A DNA stretch of 64,000 bases from Streptococcus sp. oral taxon 058 str. F0407 (GTDB lineage Bacteria; Bacillota; Bacilli; Lactobacillales; Streptococcaceae). Positions within the stretch are counted from its first letter, which is position 1; every line of letters begins with the position of its first letter. Below, piece after piece: positions 56,615 through 60,266 of this stretch. Where the stretch lies: NCBI RefSeq assembly GCF_000235485.1, contig NZ_JH378889.1, forward strand, positions 29,461 through 93,460, given 5' to 3'. A program made the translations under genes and the position numbers. The notes beneath the pieces are model-generated. The model ran no database searches and was not told where the DNA came from. It worked only from the letters and a program-made list of their open reading frames with translations.

Positions 56615-57844
56615 TTATACTTCTTCGCGTTCAAATGGCATAGACATACAACGAGGTCCACCACGGCCCCGAACCAATTCACTTCCGCGGATCTTAATCA
56701 AGCGAAGCCCGTATTCTTCTAGGATCTTATTGGTAATGGTATTGCGGGCATAAACGACTACTACACCAGGTGCGATGGTCAAAGTGTTGGAACCGTCATT
56801 CCATTGTTCACGCGCAGCTGCTACGATATTGCCACCACCGCAACGGATCAAATGAACTTTTTCTATGCCGAGGTTCTTCGCAAGAAGTTCAGCTAAGTCA
56901 CCTTTTTCTTCAACAATCTTGAGTTTTTCATCTTCATAAGTGACAGAGTACACACGAAGATCGCCTTCGATTTCTGGGTGAATTGTGAACTTGTCATAGT
57001 CAACCATGGTAAAGACAGTATCCAAGTGCATGAATTTACGGTTGTTAGCAAATTCAAATGCCAATACTTTCTTGAAGCCAACATTTTTCTTGAAGATGTT
57101 CACCAAGAGTTTTTCAATCGAAGCTGCGTCTGTACGTTGAGAAATACCAACTGCTAATACATCTTTAGAAAGAACTAATTCATCTCCACCTTCGATACGT
57201 GTATCTTCTTCACGGTTGTAAACCAATTCCACTTTTCCACCATAGATTGGATGGTGTTTGAAAATGTATTTACCATAAAGAGTTTCACGGTTACGAGTAT
57301 CTGCATACATGTGGTTAAGTGATACGGCATTACCAATAGTTGCAAATGGGTCGCGAGTGAAGTAGAGGTTTGGCATTGGGTCGATAGCAAATGGATAGTC
57401 TGACTCAACCAAGTCAGTTAAGCCTTTTGCTTCTTCAGGAATTTCTGGCAATTCAACTTTCTGAACACCAGCCATAGTTTTTTCAACCAATTCTTGGTTG
57501 TCCTTGATACTGTGAAGTAATTCACGAATAGCCGCCTTGGTTTGACGACCACGGATGTTGGCTTCGTCTAAATATTCCTCGATAAATTGATCGCGGATTT
57601 CTGGGGAAGTCAATGATTCAGCAGCCAATTGCTCTAGGTAAAGGACCTCAATTCCTTCATCACGAAGAGCTTGAGCAAATGCGTCATGTTCTTTTTGAGC
57701 ATCTTCCAAGAATGGAATGTCATCAAAAAGGAGTCTTTCAAGATAGTCAGGCAACAAGTTTTCCAACTCTTTGCCTGGACGGTGCAACATAACTTTTTTC
57801 AGTTTCCCAATTTCTGAGAATACCTGAATCGGATGTGAAGACAT
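56615..57844 (-). CDS. arcA: Arginine deiminase
   Basis: ArcA hydrolyses arginine to citrulline and ammonia, which also protects against acid. The 409-residue protein has the catalytic Cys399 ([10 protein letters not shown]), the His/Glu region ([19 protein letters not shown]) and FTRDPFA. It is the first gene of the arc operon, with AAGGAGG before the ATG and a strong promoter plus an exact cre site upstream, so it is very likely repressed by CcpA during growth on glucose. Confidence 0.97.
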
Positions 57845-57883
57845 GTGTTTTCCTCCTTAAAAATTTTTACGGTGGCACCTTTT

Positions 57884-57931
57884 TGGTACCGCTTACATTT
57901 ACGTTATATCACATTCTCAGAGGCGTGTCAA
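57884..57931 (-). promoter_or_regulatory. arcA promoter with downstream cre site
   Basis: Minus strand: -35 TTGACA (57926-57931), 17-base spacer, -10 TATAAC (57903-57908). TGTAAGCGGTACCA (57884-57897) matches the cre consensus TGNAANCGNWNNCA at every position and lies just after the transcription start, a roadblock position for CcpA. A GGTACC/GGTGCC leader hairpin overlaps it. Confidence 0.88.
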
Positions 57932-58268
57932 TAGTAAAAAATGATTAAAAATTTGGACAAAATAAGGTTTTAGTAGTATTTTATGTTATTATACGATAGC
58001 AAAAGGGATTACAGGAAATAAATGTATAAACTTCTACTAAAAAGAATATAATTTTTTTTGAAAAAATTATGCTAAATTTCACATTTTAAGAAGAAATGTC
58101 CAGATTTTAATTCAGTTCTGACGAGGAATTGAGAGGAACTGTGATTGAAAGTTGCTTAGAAAATTATATGAAATCTATCAGAAAAGTCTTTCTTCTAGGC
58201 CACTTTAAATGTATATTGTACAAATTATAGAATCTTTTCTGAGTATTTAGGAAGACAACCTTGTCTTA
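57932..58268. other. AT-rich spacer between the arc operon and the GH29 leader
   Basis: No open frame with a ribosome binding site, no clear hairpin-T terminator and no repeat was found here. ArgR or other activator sites for arcA may lie in this stretch but none could be called by eye. Confidence 0.5.
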
Positions 58269-58297
58269 TTGACGGTACCTAGATTTTTTGTTATAGT
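58269..58297 (+). promoter_or_regulatory. Candidate promoter of the GH29 leader
   Basis: -35 TTGACG (58269-58274), 17-base spacer, -10 TATAGT (58292-58297). It would give a leader of about 280 bases before the GH29 start. Confidence 0.6.
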
Positions 58298-58325
58298 CAA
58301 CGAGGTAACAACTAGGAAGAATGGT

Positions 58326-58346
58326 TTATTCACAAGTTGTGGATAA
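58326..58346. other. Inverted pair of DnaA-box-like sequences, copy 1
   Basis: TTATTCACA (58326-58334, one mismatch to the DnaA box) and TGTGGATAA (58338-58346, exact inverted box) are separated by AGT. Confidence 0.6.
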
Positions 58347-58454
58347 GTCTAGGGGAAGCAGGACATTCAGCTAATATCCTAAAAGGTTCCTGAGAATTGC
58401 ACCGGTAACTAGTAACTGGCTAGCCTTCTAGTAGAAATCCTATTGTAGTGGGGA

Positions 58455-58488
58455 TTTGAGCAGGTCTGCCTGAGAGTGACAGGTTCAA
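58455..58488 (+). other. Competing short hairpins in the GH29 leader
   Basis: A TTTGA/TCAAA outer pair encloses CAGG, CCTG and CAGG in order, so the middle CCTG can pair with either side. This is part of a 280-base leader with several other short stems (AGGA/TCCT, AAATCC/GGATTT). Confidence 0.4.
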
Positions 58489-58534
58489 AGTATAAGAGCT
58501 GGATTCTGTAAAAGCTAGTTTTTAGCATGTTTTC

Positions 58535-58555
58535 TTATCCACAAGTTGTGGATAA
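58535..58555. other. Inverted pair of exact DnaA boxes, copy 2
   Basis: TTATCCACA (58535-58543) and its exact inverse TGTGGATAA (58547-58555) are separated by AGT, forming a perfect palindrome just before the GH29 start. It lies 209 bases from copy 1. Confidence 0.7.
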
Positions 58556-58583
58556 CTTTGTGAACAAGAGAAAGAGATATGAG

Positions 58584-60266
58584 ATGATGACGAACATAAA
58601 ACCACATGGGCCATTACCAAGTCAGGCCCAGCTAGCTTATTTAGAGGATGAACTAGCTGCCTTTATCCATTTTGGTCCCAATACCTTTTATGACCAGGAA
58701 TGGGGAAGTGGGCAAGAGGATCCCAAGCGTTTTAACCCGACCAAGTTAGATGCGCGTGAATGGGTTCGGGTACTCAAAGAAACGGGTTTTAAAAAGCTGA
58801 TTTTGGTGGTCAAGCACCATGATGGTTTTGTCCTCTACCCGACCGCTTACACAGACTATTCGGTCAAGGCTAGTCCTTGGAGGGATGGAAAGGGGGACTT
58901 GCTCCTTGAAGTTTCCCAAGCTGCAACTGAGTTTGACATGGATATGGGAGTTTATTTATCTCCTTGGGATGCCCATAGTCCCCTCTATCATGTGGACCAA
59001 GAAGCAGACTACAATGCCTATTATCTGGCTCAGTTGAAGGAAATCTTATCAAATCCTGACTATGGGAATGCTGGTAAGTTTGCTGAGGTTTGGATGGATG
59101 GTGCCAGAGGGGAAGGGGCCCAGCAGGTCAACTATGAGTTTGAGACTTGGTTTGAAACTATTCATGATCTACAAGGGGATTGCTTGATATTCTCAACAGA
59201 GGGAACTAGTATTCGCTGGATTGGCAATGAACGGGGCTATGCAGGGGATCCCTTGTGGCAAAAAGTCAAGCCCGACCAGTTGGGGACAGAGGCTGCATTA
59301 GATTATCTACAGCACGGAGATTCTTCGGGTACGTTGTTTTCAATCGGTGAGGCAGATGTTTCCCTTCGCCCGGGTTGGTTTTACCATGAGGATCAGGATC
59401 CTAAGTCTCTTGAGGAGTTGATCGAAATCTACTTTCATTCAGTGGGGCGAGGAACCCCTCTCTTGCTCAATATTCCACCAAACCAAGATGGTCTCTTTGA
59501 TGAAAGAGATATCCAGCGACTGTATGAATTTAGAGCCTACCGTGACGCACTCTATAGCGAAGATTTGGCTCTGGGAGCCAAGGTATCTGGTCCGGCTCTA
59601 TCAGCAGACTTTGCCTGTCATCATCTGACAGATGGACTGGATACTAGTTCTTGGGCAAGTGATGCAGAGTTGCCCATCCAGTTAGAACTCGATTTAGGAA
59701 CTACCAAGACTTTTGATGTGATCGAGCTGAGGGAAGAGTTGAAGTTGGGGCAACGCATCGCTGACTTCCATGTTCAGGTAGAGTCGGATGGTTTCTGGCA
59801 GGAGTTTGGGTCAGGATTTACAGTGGGCTATAAACGCCTTTTGCGAGGATCCATGGTAGAGGCTCAGAAGGTGCGTGTAATCATCACAGAGGCACAGGAT
59901 TTGCCAGTATTAACTAAGATTTCACTTTATAAAACACCTAGCTTGTCGAAAAAAGAAGCTGTTCAGCAACTAGAGTTTTCAGAAAAAAGTCTAGCTGTGA
60001 CCAAGGGAGAAAATGCCCATTTTACAGTTAAGCGCAGAGAATGTAGTGGTCCTTTAGAAGCTAAGATTTCGATTCAACCCGGGACGGGTGTGCATGGTGT
60101 CGCTTATCAGGATGAGATTCAAGTCCTTATGTTTCAAGCTGGCGAGACTGAAAAAAGGTTGACGCTTCCAACCTTGTATTTCGCAGGAGATAAAACCTTG
60201 GATTTCTATCTGAACCTAATGGTGGATGGTCATCTTATTGATCAACTCCAAGTCCAAGTTTCATAA
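58584..60266 (+). CDS. GH29 alpha-L-fucosidase
   Basis: This roughly 560-residue glycoside hydrolase removes alpha-L-fucose. It has the GH29 barrel (about 1-330: FIHFGPNTF, VVKHHDGFVLYPT, and the nucleophile Asp in EVWMDGARGEG) followed by beta-rich C-terminal domains, one of them F5/8C-like (about 340-440). There is no signal peptide, so it should act in the cytoplasm on imported oligosaccharides. The frame opens at 58527, but that part would be encoded by the DnaA-box palindrome; the twin ATG at 58584/58587 fits the conserved N terminus better. It converges with GH92. Confidence 0.9.
   Translation: MMTNIKPHGPLPSQAQLAYLEDELAAFIHFGPNTFYDQEWGSGQEDPKRFNPTKLDAREWVRVLKETGFKKLILVVKHHDGFVLYPTAYTDYSVKASPWRDGKGDLLLEVSQAATEFDMDMGVYLSPWDAHSPLYHVDQEADYNAYYLAQLKEILSNPDYGNAGKFAEVWMDGARGEGAQQVNYEFETWFETIHDLQGDCLIFSTEGTSIRWIGNERGYAGDPLWQKVKPDQLGTEAALDYLQHGDSSGTLFSIGEADVSLRPGWFYHEDQDPKSLEELIEIYFHSVGRGTPLLLNIPPNQDGLFDERDIQRLYEFRAYRDALYSEDLALGAKVSGPALSADFACHHLTDGLDTSSWASDAELPIQLELDLGTTKTFDVIELREELKLGQRIADFHVQVESDGFWQEFGSGFTVGYKRLLRGSMVEAQKVRVIITEAQDLPVLTKISLYKTPSLSKKEAVQQLEFSEKSLAVTKGENAHFTVKRRECSGPLEAKISIQPGTGVHGVAYQDEIQVLMFQAGETEKRLTLPTLYFAGDKTLDFYLNLMVDGHLIDQLQVQVS

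What the first reader, a model, noticed from the sequence alone, without database searches (positions are those of the whole stretch)
58326..58555. Two DnaA-box palindromes 209 bases apart near the GH29 start
TTATCCACA and its inverse with a 3-base AGT spacer form a perfect palindrome at 58535-58555, and a near-copy (one mismatch) lies at 58326-58346. Three of the four half sites equal the DnaA consensus. Four boxes in 230 bases outside oriC recall DnaA-titration or regulatory clusters in other bacteria. Gene order suggests the region is within roughly 100 kb of oriC. The alternative is that both are RNA hairpins (9-bp stems) of the leader.
Basis: partly seen in the sequence, partly recalled or inferred. 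Interest (0 to 1): 0.8.

Follow-up and report, generated by a model that had tools for sequence, protein, structure and literature searches.

The report
Off-origin DnaA-box cluster in streptococci
About 74 kb from dnaA, this Streptococcus oralis-like chromosome carries two inverted pairs of predicted binding sites for the replication starter DnaA, and many relatives carry similar pairs, mostly 40-105 kb from dnaA but in quite different genes, so the cluster likely soaks up or switches off DnaA just after each round of replication starts rather than serving the neighbouring sugar-enzyme gene.

Summary
Observation confirmed. Two head-to-head DnaA-box pairs (TTAT[C/T]CACA-N3-TGTGGATAA) lie 209 bp apart, 74 kb from dnaA. 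At up to 3 mismatches the own genome has six such pairs: three at oriC, these two, one weak; reversed control none. Across 118 Streptococcus genomes 262 pairs were found (reversed control 1): 159 within 5 kb of dnaA, 76 further off on the dnaA contig, 27 unplaced. In 42 of 48 genomes with a placed off-origin pair the nearest lies 40-105 kb from dnaA. Gene context differs by lineage: GH29 leader, inside a GH2 gene, between convergent nrdG and its neighbour, other coding sequences. Arms are conserved (2 of 36 positions vary in the leader, 0 of 36 in the GH2 gene) where surroundings vary (137 of 188; 44% of third positions). 22 of 33 arm differences break an RNA stem, and 20 of 34 changes hit position 5, free in the DnaA consensus. 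Best reading: an off-origin DnaA sink or inactivator, like B. subtilis DnaA-box clusters or E. coli datA; none for Streptococcus appeared in my paper searches. DnaA binding and any effect on initiation are untested; 51 of 118 genomes show no off-origin pair.

The parts
58326..58334 (+). DnaA box TTATTCACA, left arm of pair 1
   Evidence: 1 of 9 positions variable in 11 S. oralis-type leaders
58338..58346 (-). DnaA box TTATCCACA, right arm of pair 1 (3-bp spacer)
   Evidence: 0 of 9 positions variable, spacer 3 of 3 variable
58535..58543 (+). DnaA box TTATCCACA, left arm of pair 2
   Evidence: 1 of 9 positions variable
58547..58555 (-). DnaA box TTATCCACA, right arm of pair 2 (3-bp spacer)
   Evidence: 0 of 9 positions variable, spacer 3 of 3 variable
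58347..58534 (.). stretch between the two pairs; fast-changing, no sign of a conserved RNA structure
   Evidence: 137 of 188 positions variable in 11 sequences; fold z -1.09 for 58240-58580; three Rfam hits in 57700-58800, all far below gathering score
58269..58297 (+). predicted promoter of the GH29 gene (TTGACG-17-TATAGT, TG before the -10)
   Evidence: 4 promoter-like sites in the stretch against 2.5 in shuffles; this is the best; 0 of 12 hexamer positions variable; 58220-58300 is 69-73% identical without gaps to the GH2 promoter stretch of 5 mitis-type loci compared
58587..60266 (+). GH29 alpha-L-fucosidase-type gene downstream (start chosen at 58587; 58584 and 58527 are in frame too)
   Evidence: Pfam PF01120

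Best explanation
The two palindromes are two head-to-head pairs of DnaA-box sequences 74 kb from dnaA that likely form an off-origin DnaA-binding cluster, which would titrate or inactivate the initiator DnaA shortly after each round of replication begins. Shown: sequence, pairing geometry, the shared motif at oriC, conservation of the arms, recurrence near the origin in unlike gene contexts. Inferred: DnaA (with a bending protein, likely HU) binds each pair and brings the two together; the cluster is copied early because it lies close to oriC, so its dose doubles just after initiation and draws free DnaA away from oriC until the cell has grown. Untested: binding, looping, nucleotide state, and the effect on initiation. 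An added effect on GH29 transcription in S. oralis is possible but would be secondary.
For: (1) Same motif at oriC: the own genome's other pairs with at most 2 mismatches lie in the gaps that I label dnaA-parB and htrA-rlmH (dnaA by search, the other labels recalled). (2) Specificity: TTWTNCACA-N3-inverse gives 262 sites in 110 of 118 genomes, reversed control 1 hit (counted); at up to 1 mismatch from TTATCCACA, 103 of 118 genomes, control 0. (3) Position: 159 sites within 5 kb of dnaA; of 48 genomes with a placed off-origin site, 42 have the nearest at 40-105 kb; 70 of 76 placed off-origin sites are on the upstream (left) arm. Over 9 placements grouped by me, 5 in that left zone give p about 4e-6; the zone was drawn after seeing the data. 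(4) Unlike contexts: GH29 leader, GH2 coding sequence, convergent nrdG gap (11 of 11 loci of that kind), upstream of an amino-acid permease beside GH92, inside recD2-, 5-FTHF-ligase- and pullulanase-type coding sequences. (5) More boxes than the pair: 87 extra boxes in 38.4 kb around 48 loci against 0.117 per kb background; 43 of 48 loci have at least one. (6) Conservation: S. oralis-type leader arms 2 of 36 variable against 137 of 188 between; mitis GH2 coding sequence 0 of 36 arm positions variable with 43.9% of third positions variable, the one change inside a palindrome being in the spacer and changing an amino acid; a frame-broken GH2 copy (L056) keeps both pairs. (7) Changes follow the DnaA consensus: 20 of 34 at position 5, none at positions 2, 4, 7, 8, 9. 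(8) Gene against position: in 12 oralis/mitis genomes nrdG lies 163-194 kb out and has no pair; in 8 genomes where nrdG lies 68-102 kb out its gap carries the pair (distances by hand).
Against: No DnaA binding or phenotype was measured. 51 of 118 genomes have no off-origin site under the pattern (my subtraction), including all 25 whose dnaA is 68-74% identical to ours, so it is not universal. Six of the 48 genomes have their nearest placed site outside the zone (118-234 kb; G025 unresolved), and single sites reach 348 kb. Nine of 40 genomes have nrdG at 62-88 kb without a pair there, and G012 has a weaker pair at 166 kb. Genomes are related, and the left-arm bias over 9 grouped placements is weak (p 0.18). 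The half-site change count leans to TTWTNCACA because part of the loci came from searches with that pattern. In the GH2 gene only 1 of 5 single boxes outside the pairs is invariant. In three of the context groups (GH29, permease, one further gap) the pairs precede a gene, where a regulatory role cannot be excluded. A review doubts that the B. [quoted passage not shown] Head-to-head pairing resembles DARS as well as datA, so the sign of the effect is uncertain.
Confidence: 0.62

Rival explanations
1. A DARS-like site: the head-to-head pairs likely hold ADP-DnaA and help it exchange to ATP-DnaA, a positive regulator of initiation.
For: Head-to-head contact between boxes I and II is described as the prominent feature of DARS, while the essential datA boxes all point one way (PMC5742627, passages). 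The streptococcal cores counted here are inverted pairs by construction of the search.
Against: DARS1 in E. coli shows a convergent pair with a 5-bp spacer plus a tandem box 3 bp on (DARS2 core not recognised by that scan); here 3 bp within the pair and often two pairs. The datA gap itself shows a 3-bp inverted pair (TTATTCACA-N3-TGTGGATGA, one mismatch) 162 bp from a consensus box. Closeness to oriC is the datA/DBC pattern.
Confidence: 0.15
2. DnaA acting as a transcription regulator of the GH29 gene: the boxes in the leader would repress or tune it.
For: In S. oralis-type loci both pairs lie between a conserved predicted promoter and the start codon; in the permease group and one further gap the pairs also precede a gene.
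Against: In other lineages the pairs lie inside coding sequences or between the 3' ends of convergent genes, where no promoter is evidently served.
Confidence: 0.1
3. An origin-domain folding element: DnaA-bound pairs would bridge to oriC or mark the edge of the left origin domain, linked to parS/SMC.
For: 70 of 76 placed off-origin sites are on the left arm. HU depletion in S. pneumoniae brings out an ori-proximal hairpin of about 100 kb on the left arm that is not seen in a smc deletion (PMC12014288, section 23 read). The own genome has parS-like sites at C18:24732, 35929 and 100347 on that side (that list is noisy, control 2 per strand against 8).
Against: The hairpin was tied to parS/SMC, not DnaA; the strain used there was not checked for a DnaA cluster; the left bias is weak once placements are grouped.
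Confidence: 0.08
4. RNA hairpins of the GH29 leader.
For: Each palindrome can form a stem of 9-10 bp.
Against: No compensatory change in 30 distinct pairs; 22 of 33 arm differences break the stem; fold not better than shuffles; element found outside leaders.
Confidence: 0.02
5. Operator of another regulator, or chance plus common descent.
For: Inverted repeats are typical operators (general knowledge).
Against: The same pairs sit at oriC and the free position is the N of the DnaA box; reversed control 1 hit in 118 genomes.
Confidence: 0.03

Closest known systems
Bacillus subtilis oriC-proximal DnaA-box clusters (DBCs; Okumura et al. 2012)
   Same: Clusters of DnaA boxes outside oriC, called oriC-proximal in the title of that paper; removing six gives early initiation, and a move to the terminus weakens the effect (as told in PMC5295017, PMC13220808, PMC5010248, passages).
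   Different: Here most genomes with a placed site have one cluster, built from inverted pairs with 3-bp spacers, in coding and non-coding DNA that differ by lineage. The original paper is not held, so the box geometry of the DBCs was not compared.
E. coli datA
   Same: A few hundred bp with several boxes, close enough to oriC to be doubled early; its core lies downstream of both flanking genes (PMC5742627, passages), as do the nrdG-gap clusters here; a 3-bp inverted pair is present.
   Different: datA needs IHF and its essential boxes point the same way (PMC5742627, passages); here the pairs are inverted, and no IHF site was sought.
E. coli DARS1/DARS2
   Same: Head-to-head box pair at the core (PMC5742627, passages; DARS1).
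   Different: Fixed three-box core, with 5-bp and 3-bp gaps in DARS1; here a 3-bp gap and two pairs, or a pair plus single boxes.
Streptomyces coelicolor DnaA-box cluster (Smulczyk-Krawczyszyn et al. 2006)
   Same: Off-origin cluster said to repress untimely initiation (as cited in PMC5742627).
   Different: Not compared in sequence.

Membership tests
B. subtilis-type DnaA-box cluster (DBC) | several DnaA boxes clustered outside oriC | tested here: met
   4 boxes in 230 bp; 36 of 41 off-origin loci listed hold at least 3 boxes, 23 hold exactly 4
B. subtilis-type DnaA-box cluster (DBC) | oriC-proximal position | tested here: met
   73.6-73.8 kb from dnaA; nearest placed site 40-105 kb in 42 of 48 genomes
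B. subtilis-type DnaA-box cluster (DBC) | occupied by DnaA in the cell | not testable with these tools
   needs ChIP-seq
B. subtilis-type DnaA-box cluster (DBC) | loss causes early initiation | not testable with these tools
   needs a mutant
E. coli datA | essential boxes all in one direction | tested here: inconclusive
   pairs are inverted, but which boxes would be essential is unknown, and datA also shows an inverted 3-bp pair
E. coli datA | IHF site between boxes | not tested
   no IHF search made; absence of IHF in streptococci is recalled
E. coli DARS | three-box core, box I opposite to II and III, fixed spacing | tested here: not met
   DARS1 gaps 5 and 3 bp; here 3 bp within each pair and 188 bp between the pairs
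RNA leader hairpin | compensatory changes in the stem | tested here: not met
   0 compensatory in 30 distinct pairs; 22 of 33 arm differences break pairing
DnaA-regulated promoter | sites kept upstream of a gene across lineages | tested here: not met
   coding or convergent-gap contexts in several other lineages

The most novel reading that the evidence does not exclude
Streptococci hold a position-tied but gene-free DnaA control site: pairs of head-to-head DnaA boxes that selection keeps about 40-105 kb from oriC on the left arm, recreating them inside whatever genes lie there (even inside reading frames, even when the host gene is broken), so that their early duplication acts as the clock that blocks a second start.
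Probability: 0.35. Interest if true: 0.85.

Novelty: new variant of a known kind. Interest (0 to 1): 0.72.

Why it matters
How streptococci limit replication to one start per cycle is, to my knowledge, poorly known; a review says it is unknown whether B. subtilis has regulators that balance DnaA-ATP and DnaA-ADP (PMC13220808, passage). A short DNA cluster whose position is largely kept while its genes change is a direct, deletable test of the titration idea in Gram-positive bacteria, and copies inside reading frames mean that such sites are missed by searches of non-coding DNA.

Tried and rejected
Rfam search of 57700-58800: three hits far below gathering score. RNA fold: ordinary. Single-box counting: little signal, since singles are barely enriched. 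parS next to the cluster: the nearest parS-like site further out is 12.3 kb beyond it (C18:100347), so no overlap; one parS-like hit in the window is what shuffles give. Helical phasing of the two pairs: spacings from 104 to 225 and 720 bp do not fit one phase (by hand). The idea that the S. oralis leader is the remnant of a lost GH2 gene: the promoters are homologous (81 bp, 69-73%) and the flank after pair 2 is shared (TGTGAACAAG, 2 of 200 shuffles as good), but the other three flanks are not above shuffles and no GH2 coding similarity was found, so it stays a lead. Papers: eight full-text searches, of which 20, 23, 38, 39, 46 and 72 named streptococci or the pneumococcus; their listings, some cut (15 of 669, 15 of 32, 8 of 71), show no title on off-origin DnaA clusters in Streptococcus. 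Only open-licence PMC papers are held, and Okumura et al. 2012 is not. A term search of the CcrZ paper PMC8387234 found no 'DnaA box' and no 'titrat'. In the order, 19 of 20 same-genus genomes had a pair, against 17 of 128 others, reversed control 1; origin and off-origin were not separated there.

Full report
What is there. The window holds two inverted pairs of DnaA-box sequences, 58326-58346 and 58535-58555, each box-3 bp-inverted box, 209 bp apart, in the gap (57845-58586) between a gene that I recognise as arcA-type (recalled) and a GH29 fucosidase-type gene. All four half sites fit TTWTNCACA; three equal TTATCCACA. The window has no other such palindrome at up to 3 mismatches, and 100 shuffles have none. 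A predicted promoter at 58269-58297 would place both pairs in the transcribed leader.

Where it is. The window is G000:C18:29461-93460; dnaA is at C18:12807-14168. The pairs lie 73.6 and 73.8 kb upstream of dnaA. In the own genome the palindrome at up to 3 mismatches occurs six times: C18:14241, 14284 and 16470 around dnaA, the two here, and C16:195033 with three mismatches; the reversed pattern does not occur. Exact single boxes number 30 in the genome against 12 in the control and relaxed ones 176 against 134, so the pairing, more than the single box, carries the signal.

Across the genus. With TTWTNCACANRNTGTGNAWAA (each site is reported once) 262 sites were found in 110 of 118 Streptococcus genomes, against one reversed-control hit (counted). 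159 lie within 5 kb of dnaA, at about -0.1 to -0.3 and -2.3 to -2.6 kb. 76 lie further off on the dnaA contig in 48 genomes, and 27 (20 genomes) are on other contigs or in a genome without a dnaA hit. In 42 of the 48 genomes the nearest off-origin site is 40-105 kb away; the other six have it at 118-234 kb, or, for G025, at an unresolved place because its contig order is unknown. 70 of 76 sites are on the upstream arm. The 40-105 kb zone was drawn after seeing the distances.

Gene context. In 10 of these 26 (8 titled S. oralis) and the window, both pairs lie upstream of GH29. In the other 16 (mitis-type) the pairs lie 720 bp apart inside a GH2 gene. In 11 unnamed loci a pair lies between the 3' ends of nrdG (radical SAM activase type) and a convergent gene, yaaA-type in 8. 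Others lie upstream of an amino-acid permease gene beside GH92 (5 loci), between the 3' ends of convergent genes beside GH92 (L156), inside recD2-, 5-FTHF cyclo-ligase-, pullulanase-type or one other coding sequence (11 loci), or in a further gap upstream of a gene. One operator or leader function does not explain this spread.

About four boxes. Around 48 off-origin loci (mitis left out) 87 further boxes lie within 400 bp of the best pair, 2.27 per kb against 0.117 per kb in the rest of those loci; 43 of 48 have at least one. Of 41 loci listed, 23 hold exactly four boxes, 36 at least three, range 2-7. In 9 of the 11 nrdG loci one box lies 232-263 bp from the pair.

Conservation. In 11 aligned S. 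oralis-type leaders 59% of positions vary; between the pairs 137 of 188, in the arms 2 of 36, in the spacers 6 of 6, in the -35/-10 hexamers 0 of 12. In the mitis GH2 gene 43.9% of third positions vary, yet 0 of 36 arm positions do (15 sequences at pair 1, 16 at pair 2); 0.88% of windows are that quiet, so two together are about 8e-5 if independent. The only change inside a palindrome there is in a spacer and changes threonine to isoleucine. Of five single boxes elsewhere in that gene one is invariant and four vary. One GH2 copy is frame-broken but keeps both pairs. Half-site changes over all contexts: 34 in 60 half sites, 20 at position 5, 7 at position 6, 4 at position 3, 3 at position 1, none elsewhere; no compensatory pair. 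Part of the loci were found with a pattern free at positions 3 and 5, which inflates those counts; those were not.

Position or gene? nrdG was placed in 40 genomes (distances by hand). In 12 oralis/mitis genomes it lies 163-194 kb upstream and has no pair, while their pairs lie elsewhere at 73-91 kb; in 8 genomes it lies 68-102 kb upstream and has the pair; G012 has it at 166 kb with a weaker pair. Against this, nine genomes have nrdG at 62-88 kb without a pair there; the remaining ten have nrdG elsewhere, without a pair. So position predicts well but not perfectly.

Mechanism. DnaA binding is predicted, not shown. The reading that fits best is a cluster like the B. subtilis DBCs, whose removal gives early initiation and whose effect weakens near the terminus (PMC5295017, PMC5010248, passages), or E. 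coli datA, which is doubled early because it lies near oriC (PMC5742627, passages). The same review of B. [quoted passage not shown] E. coli too has more boxes near oriC than expected (PMC12371093, section 6 read). An inverted pair with 3 bp is present once in the datA gap and, with 5 bp, in DARS1, so geometry alone does not tell sink from reactivator; closeness to oriC favours the sink. The left-arm hairpin seen in HU-depleted pneumococci (PMC12014288, section 23 read) is a lead for a folding role.

Limits. 51 of 118 genomes have no off-origin pair under this pattern, among them all 25 with dnaA 68-74% identical to ours. Relatedness makes genome counts non-independent; over nine grouped placements the zone is still favoured (p about 4e-6, zone chosen afterwards) but the side is not (p 0.18). 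No measurement of binding or initiation exists here. Odds are as first written: the mended numbers did not call for a change.

Noticed in passing
window 58220-58300 and L047 95-175: The predicted GH29 promoter of S. oralis-type loci is homologous to the promoter stretch of the GH2 gene that precedes GH29 in mitis-type loci, suggesting loss or gain of a 3.8-kb gene between promoter and GH29.
   Followed up: partly
L056 about 2680-2710: The GH2 gene in this record (titled S. thalassemiae) is frame-broken while both DnaA-box pairs inside it are intact.
   Followed up: partly
window 57870-57892: A short G+C-rich inverted repeat (GGTGGCACC...GGTACCGC) upstream of the arcA-type gene, of unknown role.
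   Followed up: no
G000:C18:24732, 35929, 100347: parS-like sites on the same arm as the cluster; the outermost lies 12.3 kb beyond it.
   Followed up: partly
L121 against L123: In G002 the cluster lies on the opposite side of dnaA from relatives with the same neighbours, as after an inversion around the origin or an assembly error.
   Followed up: no
G014, G022, G110, G117 (placed), G016, G064, G112 (unplaced): Seven genomes carry several off-origin pairs; placed ones lie at about 41-51, 140-183, 271-348 kb (and one at 292 kb on the other arm), recalling the multiple clusters of B. subtilis.
   Followed up: partly
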